Source: Chloroflexota bacterium (GTDB taxonomy: Bacteria > Chloroflexota > UBA11872 > VXNJ01). From it: 64,000 nt of DNA. Both the position numbers and the translations under genes were made by a program. Location: the NCBI GenBank assembly GCA_009840625.1, contig VXNJ01000001.1, positions 720,183 through 784,182 on the forward strand. The letters run 5' to 3'. Positions 1 through 4,681 of the stretch are shown piece by piece. Within the stretch, counting starts at the first letter, position 1, and each line of letters opens with the position of its first letter. The notes beneath the pieces were generated by a model that was not told the DNA's origin, ran no database searches, and was given only the letters and a program-made list of their open reading frames with translations.

Positions 1-926
1 GGATTCGATGTCGGCGGGTTGCGCCCGGCCTTCGGGACGGGCGGGGATTGAAACTTGGGCGGTGAGTCCACTCCATTCCGCCCAGAAGTTGCGCCCGGCC
101 TTCGGGACGGGCGGGGATTGAAACGTGTTTTGACCAGCCTGCCCGGATTCGATGTCGGCGGGTTGCGCCCGGCCTTCGGGACGGGCGGGGATTGAAACTC
201 CGAGAACGAGCGCTCCGAGATCGACCAGGAGTCGTTGCGCCCGGCCTTCGGGACGGGCGGGGATTGAAACAAGAGTGCCGAATACATCACCTGGGATGCG
301 CAGCAGTGTTGCGCCCGGCCTTCGGGACGGGCGGGGATTGAAACTTGGGCGGTGAGTCCACTCCATTCCGCCCAGAAGTTGCGCCCGGCCTTCGGGACGG
401 GCGGGGATTGAAACGTGTTTTGACCAGCCTGCCCGGATTCGATGTCGGCGGGTTGCGCCCGGCCTTCGGGACGGGCGGGGATTGAAACCAACGCGCCGGT
501 GACCCAGACGTCCTGCGAGAGAGTGTTGCGCCCGGCCTTCGGGACGGGCGGGGATTGAAACTTTTACAGCCGCGGGCGTCTAGTCGGAATACTACGAGTT
601 GCGCCCGGCCTTCGGGACGGGCGGGGATTGAAACTGGAAGAGTTCCCGCATCCGCGCCACAATGCCTCGTTGCGCCCGGCCTTCGGGACGGGCGGGGATT
701 GAAACGTTTCCCGGGAACCGCGCTGGTCGGCGGACGGCGCCAGGTTGCGCCCGGCCTTCGGGACGGGCGGGGATTGAAACTACGAGTCAGTGGAGCCCGA
801 TATCGGGTCCGACTTGTTGCGCTCGGCCTTCGGGCCGGGCGGGGATTGAAACTTAAATTTCCTTTTGGTAGTCGCATCCCTGGTTCGAGGTTGCGCCCGG
901 CCCGAAGGCCGGGCGGGGAATGAAAC
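1..926 (+). CRISPR. CRISPR array, 13 repeats, truncated at left edge
   Basis: Thirteen copies of a 37-bp repeat start at 18, 88, 162, 234, 308, 378, 452, 525, 598, 669, 744, 816 and 890, separated by spacers of 33 to 38 bp. The repeat begins GTTGCGCCCGG and ends GGGGATTGAAAC, the terminal ATTGAAAC being the classic 8-nt crRNA handle of many type I and III systems. This puts transcription on the + strand and the leader left of position 1. The last two repeats are degenerate (816-852 with two changes, 890-926 with a rewritten loop), which marks the right side as the trailer end. Bases 1-17 are the tail of a spacer that recurs in full at 125-161 and 415-451. Subtype cannot be assigned because no cas gene is in the window. 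Confidence 0.98.
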
Positions 927-1027: not shown

Positions 1028-1219
1028 TTGATCAACTACAAGCAGTACCGGGACCATGACCGGGCCCATTTCGCGAAAGTGCTGATATTCAGCATTTTGA
1101 CGCTCGGGGTTTACGCCTGGTGGCTACGCTACCGCCAAACCGAGGACATGCTGGACCTCCAGGCCAAAATGGTCGCGCTACTGTCCGAAGCAATGAGTCG
1201 AAGCATGGCCCGCCAATGA
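1028..1219 (+). CDS. Small single-pass membrane protein, unknown function
   Basis: A 63-residue protein starting at TTG with a good Shine-Dalgarno GGAGG at 1016-1020, seven bases upstream. Residues about 16 to 34 form one hydrophobic segment (VLIFSILTLGVYAWWL), preceded by a charged N-terminus and followed by an amphipathic helix. It is the first gene after the CRISPR trailer. Its stop overlaps the start of the next gene by four bases (ATGA at 1216-1219), so the two are probably translated together. I do not recognise the family. The overlap with an immunity-like membrane protein suggests a partner role, which is inference. Confidence 0.6.
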   Translation: MINYKQYRDHDRAHFAKVLIFSILTLGVYAWWLRYRQTEDMLDLQAKMVALLSEAMSRSMARQ

Positions 1220-1626
1220 AAATGAGCAAACGCGACATCGGAATCCTCGCCGCTTTGGTCGGGTTTTTGGCGTTGTTTTGGGCGGCCGTTTGGATCGGAG
1301 CCTGGGCTCCAGACTCCGAACTGATTGAGCTCGGCGGATCGCGGGTGGCCGGCGCGCTGCTGTTGACGGTCTTAATGGTGGTTTTGACCGCGATCTATCT
1401 GATCCCGACCGCTTTGGCCTTTTACCGAGAGCACCCGAATGCCGTCGCGATCGCCGTGGTGAACGTCATTTTGGGCCTGGCGTTCGGCGTCGGTTGGCTA
1501 GCGGCTTTGGTTTGGACGCTAGTCAGCCGCAACGTGCGCAAGGAGCGAATCACCGAGGAAAAACGGGCCGCTAGCGCGGCGCTGGCCAGGCCACAGGGCC
1601 GACAGCCGATCACCTTTCAGGAATGA
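1216..1626 (+). CDS. Superinfection immunity-like membrane protein
   Basis: A 136-residue membrane protein. The C-terminal half matches the pattern of the superinfection immunity family (Imm_superinfect, named after phage T4 Imm): a hydrophobic helix, a short loop with YREHPNAVAIAVVNVILG, then a second helix with GVGWLAALVWTL. T4 Imm blocks DNA entry of a second phage at the inner membrane, but many bacterial members are uncharacterised. An extra N-terminal hydrophobic helix (about residues 9-30) and a third one (about 45-62) precede that domain. The start is the ATG overlapping the upstream stop; a longer open frame exists upstream but runs inside the previous gene. Family call is fairly secure, defensive role is inferred. 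Confidence 0.75.
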   Translation: MKMSKRDIGILAALVGFLALFWAAVWIGAWAPDSELIELGGSRVAGALLLTVLMVVLTAIYLIPTALAFYREHPNAVAIAVVNVILGLAFGVGWLAALVWTLVSRNVRKERITEEKRAASAALARPQGRQPITFQE

Positions 1627-1629
1627 GCG

Positions 1630-1851
1630 ATGAGCGAAGAATTGCTTCCATTATTGAGCGCTGTACACCAAGAGCTGCGAGTATCCAACGCGTTCCGATT
1701 GCTAGGAATGATTGATGACCCGGGCCCAGCGAGGCAGGAGCTGCGTTTAGAGATCGGGCGCAAGTCCGGGTCGAGCAGGGCAGAATCGATCATCGCCCGA
1801 ATGAAGAGGTCGGCGAGCGACATGATCGTAGACAGTTGGCGGGAGTACTGA
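1630..1851 (+). CDS. Small hypothetical protein downstream of immunity-like gene
   Basis: A 73-residue soluble, charged protein starting at ATG three bases after the previous stop, so it is probably the third gene of the same operon. It is predicted mostly helical and has no membrane segment. The C-terminal half is basic (SRAESIIARMKRSASD). I do not recognise it. Its tight spacing to two membrane proteins suggests a cytosolic partner. Confidence 0.5.
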   Translation: MSEELLPLLSAVHQELRVSNAFRLLGMIDDPGPARQELRLEIGRKSGSSRAESIIARMKRSASDMIVDSWREY

Positions 1852-1891
1852 GGCTGTTCCGAGTGGCGGCGCGCCGATCACCGGATCCTAG

Positions 1892-2071
1892 GGTGCACCG
1901 TGGCGCAGGTGTCGACTGGAGGTCCTGGTCCGCGATCAGGGCCTGCGCCAGATCCGCGACCCAGACAACACCATCCGCCCAACCCGAATCGACCACATCA
2001 CCACCCCCCATCGCCTGCGCGGCAACAACGAAATCTTGGTAACGATGGGCCAATTGCCAGAATTTGAGTAA
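1892..2071 (+). pseudogene. Possible C-terminal gene remnant ahead of tnpB
   Basis: After an in-frame TAG at 1889-1891 a frame stays open to TAA at 2069-2071 without a convincing start codon. The peptide from about 1916 has coding-like composition (LEVLVRDQGLRQIRDPDN, later EILVTMGQLPEFE), unlike the opposite strand. It ends three bases before the tnpB start. It may be the tail of a gene whose front was lost when the TnpB element or the neighbouring cassette arrived. I do not recognise the family, and it could simply be a chance open frame. Confidence 0.3.
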
Positions 2072-2074
2072 ACG

Positions 2075-3307
2075 GTGAAACGTGGCCATCGAATAGCGCT
2101 GAAGCCAACGCAGCAGCAGGAAGCGGCATTCCGCCAACACGCAGGCTACGCGAGATTTGCTTACAACTGGGCAGTAAACGAGTTCAAAACCGGCCTGGAG
2201 TCAGGCGAGTGGTTGAGTGAAAAGACTCTGCGGCCGCGCTGGAATAAAGTCAAACGCCGAATTGCACCTTGGTCCCACCCCCTTTCGCAGAATGCAGCCA
2301 AGTACGCGATCATCAACTTTGGCCGAGCTGCCGATGGTTGGGGAACTTCGCGCATCGCAGTGAAATCCGGTAAATGTCGCGGCCGGCGAGTCGGGTTCCC
2401 TCGATTCAAGCGTCGGAAGCACGAGCAGGGTTTTAGAGCGGACAACGGACCCGGCACAGTCCGGGTGGATGGCAAGACCGTGCGGCTACCGAAAATCGGC
2501 ATGGTGCCCATGGTTGAAGAGCTACGCTTCACCGGCTCCATACGCGAGGTCACCATCAACCGGACCGCCGGCGTGTGGTTTGCCTGCTTTAGCGTCGAGG
2601 ACGGTCAGCCGATTCCGCCCGTGAAACCCGGCCAAGTTGTCGGTGTGGACGTGGGAGTAGGCGTGCTGGCAGTCTGCTCAAATGGTCTGCGGGTGCGAAA
2701 CCCGAAATCGTTGAACGCCAGGGTCGAACGCTTGCGCCGGATAGACAAAGCGCTGGCCCGCTCAAGGAACGTCCATGGAAAAACTAATCGCAGCAAGCGG
2801 CGCGACCGCATGCTCGCAAGGCGCCGGAGGATCCACGCCAAAATTGTCAGGGTCAGAAACGACAATCACCACAAGGCCACAACCGCGATAGCCAAGCGCG
2901 CCAGCCTTGTGGTGGTCGAGACACTAAACGTGTCTGGAATGACCCGCAACAGGCGATTGGCGCGGGCCGTTGCAGATGCCGGACTTTCCGGATTCTTGGC
3001 CATGTTGGAGTACAAGTGCGTCTGGTACGGCTCGGAGTTCGTTAAAGCGGACCGTTGGTTCCCCTCGTCACAGCTGTGCGCTCGCTGCGGCTGGCGCAAT
3101 GCGGAATTGACTCTGTCAGACCGGAGATGGCGGTGTGGAGGCTGCGGGGTGCTTAACGAACGAGACGAAAACGCCGCATTAAATTTAAAGAATTGGCCGA
3201 GTTCGAGCTTCTCGGTGTCAGGACGTGGAGACCGCGCAAGTCCGACTAAGTCGGCAGTGGCCTGTGAAGCGTCAACGGGCCCAGTCGCTGCCCCTGGCCT
3301 AAATTAG
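2075..3307 (+). CDS. tnpB: TnpB, RNA-guided endonuclease of IS200/IS605-type elements
   Basis: A 410-residue TnpB starting at GTG. It has the OrfB helix-turn-helix N-terminus (MKRGHRIALKPT... typical), then a split RuvC nuclease: D192 in VGVDVGVG, E282 in VVVETLNVSGM, and D364 in NERDENAALNL. A zinc ribbon sits between them with Cys335/Cys338 and Cys354/Cys357. All catalytic and zinc residues are intact, so the nuclease could be active. In this family the protein uses a guide RNA made from the 3' end of its own gene and flanking element end. No tnpA is adjacent, so this is an IS1341-like TnpB-only element or a domesticated copy. It lies about 1.1 kb from the CRISPR array. Confidence 0.95.
   Translation: MKRGHRIALKPTQQQEAAFRQHAGYARFAYNWAVNEFKTGLESGEWLSEKTLRPRWNKVKRRIAPWSHPLSQNAAKYAIINFGRAADGWGTSRIAVKSGKCRGRRVGFPRFKRRKHEQGFRADNGPGTVRVDGKTVRLPKIGMVPMVEELRFTGSIREVTINRTAGVWFACFSVEDGQPIPPVKPGQVVGVDVGVGVLAVCSNGLRVRNPKSLNARVERLRRIDKALARSRNVHGKTNRSKRRDRMLARRRRIHAKIVRVRNDNHHKATTAIAKRASLVVVETLNVSGMTRNRRLARAVADAGLSGFLAMLEYKCVWYGSEFVKADRWFPSSQLCARCGWRNAELTLSDRRWRCGGCGVLNERDENAALNLKNWPSSSFSVSGRGDRASPTKSAVACEASTGPVAAPGLN
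3242..3254 (+). other. Hairpin in the 3' end of tnpB, candidate omega-RNA element
   Basis: CCGAC, loop TAA, GTCGG forms a perfect 5-bp stem within the last 25 codons of tnpB. TnpB guide RNAs are known to cover this part of the gene and continue past the stop into the right end of the element, so this stem and the 3255-3361 flank are the place to look for the scaffold. The right-end boundary could not be fixed from one copy. Confidence 0.35.
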
Positions 3308-3361: not shown

Positions 3362-4681
3362 ATGGAGCCTTCTAGTTGGATCGGGCTATTTGGATCGCTC
3401 GTTGTAACCCTGCTTGCCGCCTACGGATCCGCGGTCGAAGCCGCCACGCTGGCGATGCGGCCCTCACGTCTGCGTGAACTGGCTGACGACGGCAACGAAG
3501 CGGCGGCATCGATCCTCCGCCTGCTGGAGAACCAGAACCGCCGGGCCACCCTAACCGTCTCGCTGAGCCTGGCCTCAGCGATCCTAGCTGCGGTGCTGGT
3601 TACCGCGGTCCTGGCGCCGGAACTTGAACGCGCCGGGTTGCCATTCCCATTTGCCGCGATCGTTCTGACCCTGTTGGTGGTTTTTGTCCACGTTGTTTTT
3701 GTCGCCCGGCTGGCCAGGCGCATCGGGCGTCGCCTTAACGAGGACCGGACGCTGGCCCAGGCCCGGCCTTGGCGCTTGTTGCTGATGGCGGTGGCGCCGC
3801 TCGCGCTATTGGCGGATTTCGTTACTGACCGTGGATTAGCGGCTTTTGGGCGCGGCCGCGAGGCCGAGGAGATCGGCGAACTCGGCGAGCTGCGCGAAAT
3901 CATCGAAGCGTCCGAGCTCGAGGAAGCAATATCCGAAGAGGACGTCGACATGATTCAGGGAGTGCTGGAGATTTCGCGCGAGCAAATAAGGCACATCATG
4001 ACGCCCCGTCCGGACATGGTCATGGTTGCCGCCGAAACGCCGGCCGCTAATGCTCTCAAGATCGCCCTCGAGCACGGTCATTCGCGCCTGCCGGTGTACG
4101 CCGGCGACCACGACTCGATAGTGGGCATGGTCTCGGTTCGACAGATCGCGGCTTCGCTAATTGATCCGACCGCCGGCCAGCAACCGGTGGGCGAGCTTGC
4201 CCAACCGGCGTTCTTCGTTCCCGAAACCAAGATGGTTGACGATCTGCTGGGCGAGCTGCAGGCCGGACGCACCCACATGGCGATCGCGATCGACGAGTAC
4301 GGCGATACCGCCGGGCTGGTGACGATGGAGGACATCATCGAACGGATCGTCGGCGACATCCGCGACGAAACCGACCAGGAACCGATCGAAATCATTCCCG
4401 ACGGAGATGGCGCCTACCTGGTTGACGGTCGGGTCCGATTGGGCGAACTGGCCGAGCAGACCGGGATCGAGCTCGAGGCGGCCGACGCCGACACTTTGGC
4501 CGGGTTGGTCTTCCTGCGCCTGGGGCATGTCCCCGACGACGGCGAGATACTCGACATCGACGGAATCGCGATCGAGGTCGCCCTGGTGGAGAACAACCGC
4601 ATCCGACGGCTGCGCCTCACTCCCGACACCGATCAACCCAAGCCGGGCACGCCCAATCCGGACGGTCGGCAAGCCGCCTAG
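3362..4681 (+). CDS. Hemolysin C/CorC-family CNNM transporter-like protein
   Basis: A 439-residue integral membrane protein with the usual order: DUF21/CNNM transmembrane domain with hydrophobic segments in residues about 5 to 160, a tandem CBS pair beginning at HIMTPRPDMVMV and including MAIAIDEYGDTAGLVTMEDI, and a C-terminal CorC_HlyC (transporter-associated) domain from about residue 340. The family is linked to magnesium or other divalent cation export, with CBS domains sensing nucleotides. Start is ATG without a strong ribosome site. It stands alone, 48 bp before recO. Specific substrate is not shown by the sequence. Confidence 0.9.
   Translation: MEPSSWIGLFGSLVVTLLAAYGSAVEAATLAMRPSRLRELADDGNEAAASILRLLENQNRRATLTVSLSLASAILAAVLVTAVLAPELERAGLPFPFAAIVLTLLVVFVHVVFVARLARRIGRRLNEDRTLAQARPWRLLLMAVAPLALLADFVTDRGLAAFGRGREAEEIGELGELREIIEASELEEAISEEDVDMIQGVLEISREQIRHIMTPRPDMVMVAAETPAANALKIALEHGHSRLPVYAGDHDSIVGMVSVRQIAASLIDPTAGQQPVGELAQPAFFVPETKMVDDLLGELQAGRTHMAIAIDEYGDTAGLVTMEDIIERIVGDIRDETDQEPIEIIPDGDGAYLVDGRVRLGELAEQTGIELEAADADTLAGLVFLRLGHVPDDGEILDIDGIAIEVALVENNRIRRLRLTPDTDQPKPGTPNPDGRQAA

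What the first reader, a model, noticed from the sequence alone, without database searches (positions are those of the whole stretch)
1028..1851. Three-gene immunity-like cassette between CRISPR array and TnpB
A 63-residue membrane protein, a superinfection-immunity-like membrane protein and a small basic soluble protein are packed with 4-bp overlap and 3-bp spacing. Only the middle gene has a recognised family. Position beside a CRISPR array and a TnpB nuclease suggests a defence spot, so the flanking small genes are candidates for partners of a membrane-level phage exclusion system.
Basis: partly seen in the sequence, partly recalled or inferred. Interest (0 to 1): 0.6.

Follow-up and report, generated by a model that had tools for sequence, protein, structure and literature searches.

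The report
Imm-family membrane gene beside CRISPR array
Three tiny genes next to a bacterial CRISPR system do exist, and the middle one belongs to the same protein family as a phage protein that blocks rival phages, but the trio was found together nowhere else searched, so it looks like local cargo of one genomic island rather than a new defence system.

Summary
The observation largely holds. ORF1 (1028-1219), ORF2 (1216-1626) and ORF3 (1630-1851) form a tight operon-like row between a CRISPR array and a TnpB gene. Corrections: ORF1 has a family (half of a DUF4234 domain, marginal), and ORF3 is neutral, not basic. ORF2 is a true PF14373 (Imm_superinfect) member; T4 Imm hits the same model. Upstream of the window lies a complete type I-C locus feeding the array. 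In four genomes of the same family prs and corC are neighbours (81-92 bp); here 13.5 kb separates them, holding the I-C locus, array, cassette and TnpB. So the defence-type context is real.

The three-partner exclusion system is not supported. PF14373 and DUF4234 genes are side by side in none of 300 other Chloroflexota genomes; 59 PF14373 loci from across bacteria have no convincing DUF4234 neighbour, no ORF3 relative, no relative of our TnpB or Cas proteins and no array; eight related I-C loci do not show the cassette (some contigs end early). ORF3 has no detectable relative. Best reading: lineage-specific cargo operon of a CRISPR/TnpB island, with one Imm-family membrane protein that may act on phage DNA entry (untested).

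The parts
1..923 (+). Leader-distal (trailer) part of the type I-C CRISPR array: 13 repeats of 37 nt in the window, the last one (887-923) degenerate
   Evidence: the repeat finder; array continues upstream in L002 17.75-19.99 kb
1028..1219 (+). ORF1, 63 aa, one TM helix, N-terminal half of a DUF4234 domain
   Evidence: PF14018 E=1e-5, 26.0 bits against cut-off 25.3, model positions 3-35 of 70; hydropathy; codon score
1216..1626 (+). ORF2, 136 aa, three-TM protein of the superinfection immunity family (PF14373)
   Evidence: PF14373 E=2.4e-11; PHROG 1039 'immunity to superinfection' E=3.5e-15; T4 Imm hits the same two models; best viral fold matches are phage superinfection immunity proteins, probability 0.98 though E=0.01
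1630..1851 (+). ORF3, 73 aa, neutral, all-helical in a single-sequence model, no known relative
   Evidence: no Pfam/NCBIfam/PADLOC hit; no relative in 380 phylum genomes, GTDB contigs, plasmids or viral contigs; model pLDDT 81, no significant fold match
2075..3307 (+). TnpB RNA-guided nuclease gene, single copy of its type in the genome, no TnpA beside it
   Evidence: NF040570 E=4e-72; IS607-type TnpB is the best model but below its cut-off; own-genome search finds only two distant TnpB
3362..4681 (+). corC/hlyC-type gene, right border of the inserted stretch (adjacent to prs in relatives)
   Evidence: PF01595, PF00571 and PF03471; synteny in G001-G004

Best explanation
The three ORFs are a small accessory operon carried as cargo in a 13.5-kb stretch inserted between prs and corC, together with a complete type I-C CRISPR-Cas locus, its array and a TnpB gene. 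ORF2 is a chromosomal member of the Imm/PF14373 family: three TM helices, with the conserved core (Y..P, N, G, GW) that the family shares. If it acts on phages, the likeliest way is T4-Imm-like: sitting in the inner membrane and disturbing transfer of incoming phage DNA (inferred, not shown). ORF1 (one TM plus a short helix) and ORF3 (small helical soluble protein) are probably locally recruited, translationally coupled genes, not obligate parts of a conserved three-component system. Shown: gene layout, family of ORF2, island context, lack of co-occurrence. Inferred: membrane action, anti-phage role, any interaction of the products.
For: Family. Layout and coding signal. Island: complete I-C locus upstream; prs and corC are 81-92 bp apart in G001-G004 and 13,503 bp apart here; cassette (58.5% GC) and tnpB (59.1%) are poorer in GC than the right flank (64.7%). 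No co-occurrence: PF14373 in 43 and PF14018 in 15 of 301 Chloroflexota genomes, both in only G000, G029 and G097, adjacent only in G000; 59 GTDB loci without partners; ORF3 without relatives.
Against: The island could be several separate insertions, since the relatives compared are other genera (CorC 38-45% identical). The tight coupling (4-bp overlap, 3-bp gap) would also fit a functional unit. No experiment known to me links PF14373 proteins of bacterial chromosomes to phage exclusion; in relatives they sit among ordinary genes, so a housekeeping membrane role is possible.
Confidence: 0.55

Rival explanations
1. A genuine, very rare three-component membrane exclusion system: ORF2 blocks phage DNA entry, ORF1 anchors or positions it in the membrane, ORF3 is a cytosolic regulator or effector.
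For: Overlapping, tightly spaced genes; Imm family core; shares an inserted stretch with CRISPR-Cas and TnpB.
Against: No second example of the trio in the phylum samples, 59 bacterial PF14373 loci, plasmids or viral contigs; ORF3 has no relative at all; no PADLOC model fits (PADLOC seems to hold no Imm model, so this counts little).
Confidence: 0.1
2. The cassette is passenger cargo of a TnpB-bearing or other insertion element, with no defence role.
For: TnpB lies 223 bp downstream; in the same class, G029 carries a 1.6-kb IS1595-type element in three copies with a short DUF4234-like protein plus a 73-77 aa ORF, so short DUF4234 proteins do ride on insertion sequences.
Against: The cassette and this tnpB are single-copy in the genome; no terminal repeats above chance around them; the only class relative of this TnpB (G037) shows no such cargo.
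Confidence: 0.15
3. Ordinary membrane genes: ORF2 is a small chromosomal membrane protein whose family name comes from T4 Imm but whose bacterial role is unrelated to phages; its place by the CRISPR array is coincidence.
For: PF14373 genes of relatives sit beside aminotransferase, phosphoesterase, methyltransferase and other ordinary genes; among 109 proteins flanking 59 loci no defence family recurs in more than 3.
Against: Here the gene is absent from all four family relatives and lies in an inserted stretch with CRISPR-Cas, so it is accessory, not housekeeping, in this genome.
Confidence: 0.2

Closest known systems
Phage T4 Imm (PF14373, PHROG 1039)
   Same: Same Pfam and PHROG families; 22% identity over the core, BLASTP E=2e-5 in a single comparison
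   Different: T4 Imm is 83 aa and encoded by a phage; ORF2 is 136 aa with an additional N-terminal TM helix, one extra residue before the GW motif and a charged C-terminal tail, and is chromosomal
Chromosomal PF14373 proteins of Chloroflexota and other bacteria
   Same: Same domain, up to 56% identity over the core in 59 GTDB loci
   Different: Neighbours differ; none has a convincing DUF4234 neighbour or an ORF3 relative
DUF4234 (PF14018)
   Same: ORF1 carries the first half of the domain including the TLGVY motif
   Different: Only model positions 3-35 of 70; many Chloroflexota members are parts of longer proteins
Short DUF4234 passenger of the IS1595-type element in G029
   Same: Short one-TM DUF4234-like protein followed by a small ORF
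   Different: Sits inside a three-copy insertion sequence; no PF14373 gene beside it
Type I-C CRISPR-Cas locus
   Same: Complete cas3-5c-8c-7-4-1-2 upstream of the array that ends beside the cassette
   Different: The cassette is not a part of I-C: none of eight related loci shows it, though several contigs end early

Membership tests
PF14373 Imm_superinfect (ORF2) | Match above the curated Pfam cut-off over the whole 42-residue domain | tested here: met
   43.7 bits against 27.9, model 1-41 of 42
PF14373 Imm_superinfect (ORF2) | Conserved Y..P, N, G and GW core residues | tested here: met
   P64, G87 and W94 invariant, Y61, N83 and G93 at 90% or more in 68 sequences; one-residue insertion before GW in ORF2
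T4 Imm-like superinfection exclusion | Expression blocks DNA entry of superinfecting phage | not testable with these tools
   Needs an experiment; T4 Imm is listed as DNA injection inhibition in PMC11436027
PF14018 DUF4234 (ORF1) | Match above the curated cut-off over most of the domain | tested here: inconclusive
   26.0 against 25.3 bits but half the domain only; 24.8 bits, below cut-off, in the six-frame search
Conserved three-gene defence system | Same gene set recurs in unrelated genomes | tested here: not met
   No second instance
Conserved three-gene defence system | Recurrent association of its core gene with defence genes | tested here: not met
   109 proteins flanking PF14373 genes: no PADLOC family matches more than 3; no Cas, TnpB or array near 59 loci
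Defence or genomic island | Inserted stretch absent at the syntenic site of relatives, with several defence or mobile genes | tested here: met
   prs and corC adjacent in G001-G004, 13.5 kb apart here with I-C locus, array and TnpB
Insertion-sequence cargo | Terminal repeats or multiple copies enclosing the cassette | tested here: not met
   Single copy; no end repeats above shuffles

The most novel reading that the evidence does not exclude
A cell-encoded, Imm-based membrane barrier against phage DNA entry, with two dedicated small partners, layered in one island with type I-C CRISPR-Cas and a TnpB nuclease.
Probability: 0.08. Interest if true: 0.6.

Novelty: new member of a known kind. Interest (0 to 1): 0.22.

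Why it matters
If ORF2 blocks DNA entry, it would show that an Imm-type exclusion protein, known from phages, has been taken up as a cell's own defence and packaged with adaptive immunity. As it stands, the main value is a clean case of a CRISPR-Cas island inserted at a conserved site with an Imm-family gene among its cargo, and a caution that gene packing plus a suggestive family name do not make a system.

Tried and rejected
Looked for the trio through ORF3 and ORF1 as the most specific probes: nothing above chance in the class, the phylum, plasmids, viral contigs or, for ORF3, GTDB contigs. The weak phylum hits to ORF3 (E about 0.006 per genome) are about what 380 genomes give by chance, and their translations on either strand do not look like small-gene relatives. 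ORF2 against phages and plasmids by tblastn: none; one viral contig carries a relative at 36%. A first nine-sequence alignment was too diverse for a genome scan. Insertion-element ends around the cassette: none above shuffles. The stretch between ORF3 and tnpB (1852-2074) has an open frame ending ...HITTPHRLRGNNEILVTMGQLPEFE* but no family match. The fold search for ORF3 gave nothing significant. The ORF2 model is moderate (pLDDT 75, pTM 0.37), so its matches to phage immunity proteins are only supportive. The T4 imm and HK97 gp15 papers were not held.

Full report
What is there. ORF1 starts with TTG behind GGAGGG. ORF2 has no clear Shine-Dalgarno sequence of its own and is presumably translationally coupled (inference from the sequence). 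A codon model trained on the window's long ORFs prefers the claimed frame for all three; ORF1 and ORF2 look like normal genes, ORF3 is weak but scores like the neighbouring TnpB gene.

What the genes are. ORF2 matches PF14373, Imm_superinfect (2.4e-11), and PHROG 1039 'immunity to superinfection' (3.5e-15). Phage T4 Imm, fetched from its genome record, matches the same two models (7e-16 and 7e-32), and the two proteins align over the core at 22% identity. ORF2 differs by an extra N-terminal TM helix, one extra residue before the conserved GW and a charged tail. Its model (pLDDT 75) finds phage superinfection immunity proteins as the best viral matches, with probability 0.95-0.98 but E values of only 0.01-0.09. 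ORF1 carries the first half of a DUF4234 domain, just above the cut-off. ORF3 matches no family, has net charge 0, and is predicted all-helical from its sequence alone.

Where it sits. Upstream of the window is a complete type I-C locus, cas3-cas5c-cas8c-cas7-cas4-cas1-cas2, whose array of about 43 repeats runs into the window and ends at 923 with degenerate repeats. The cassette is therefore at the old, leader-distal end of the array. In the four genomes of the same family, prs is followed directly by corC at 81-92 bp; here 13,503 bp separate them, filled by the I-C locus, the array, the cassette and TnpB. The simplest reading is an inserted island; several successive insertions cannot be excluded because the relatives are distant (CorC 38-45% identical).

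Do the genes belong together? In 301 Chloroflexota genomes (phylum inferred from the named relatives) PF14373 is found in 43 and DUF4234 in 15; three genomes have both, and only the window's own genome has them side by side. A GTDB scan returned 59 PF14373 loci from many phyla. Within about 6 kb, none had a relative of ORF3, of our TnpB or of our Cas proteins, or a CRISPR array; the only DUF4234-like signal was one insignificant hit 3.8 kb away. Scanning 109 flanking proteins, no defence family matches more than three of them, and the commonest neighbours are of many unrelated kinds. Of eight type I-C relatives fetched, none shows the cassette, although several contigs end before the far side of their array. 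ORF3 has no relative in the class, the phylum sample, plasmids, viral contigs or the GTDB scan. The pattern scans reach close relatives only, so a rare trio in unsampled lineages remains possible.

How it most likely works. T4 Imm, together with Spackle, gives superinfection exclusion and is listed as acting by inhibiting DNA injection (PMC7677548, PMC11436027). By family, ORF2 could act likewise from the inner membrane; this is inference. There is no comparative evidence that ORF1 or ORF3 are needed. An insertion-sequence passenger reading was tested: there is a single copy and there are no end repeats, yet a related genome shows a short DUF4234 protein riding in a three-copy IS1595-type element, so the idea is kept as a rival.

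Verdict. Interest is low to moderate.

Noticed in passing
L072, L079, L080 (genome G029), about 1277-2890 in each: A 1.6-kb IS1595-type element in three copies (two identical, one 92%) carries a short DUF4234-like protein and a 73-77 aa ORF as passengers.
   Followed up: partly
window 18-198 and 308-488, and L002 19872-19993: An exact 181-nt duplication of repeats and spacers inside the CRISPR array, beside a run of N just before the window; real duplication or assembly artefact.
   Followed up: no
window 887-923: The last CRISPR repeat has a rewritten stem (CCCGGCCCGAAGGCCGGG instead of CCCGGCCTTCGGGACGGG) that stays self-complementary.
   Followed up: no
window 1852-2074: Stretch without an assigned gene but with an open frame ending ...RPTRIDHITTPHRLRGNNEILVTMGQLPEFE*, perhaps the remnant of a lost gene; no family match.
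   Followed up: partly
L002 9852-19993 to window 3361: A 13.5-kb inserted stretch between prs and corC holds a whole type I-C CRISPR-Cas locus; absent in four relatives of the same family.
   Followed up: yes
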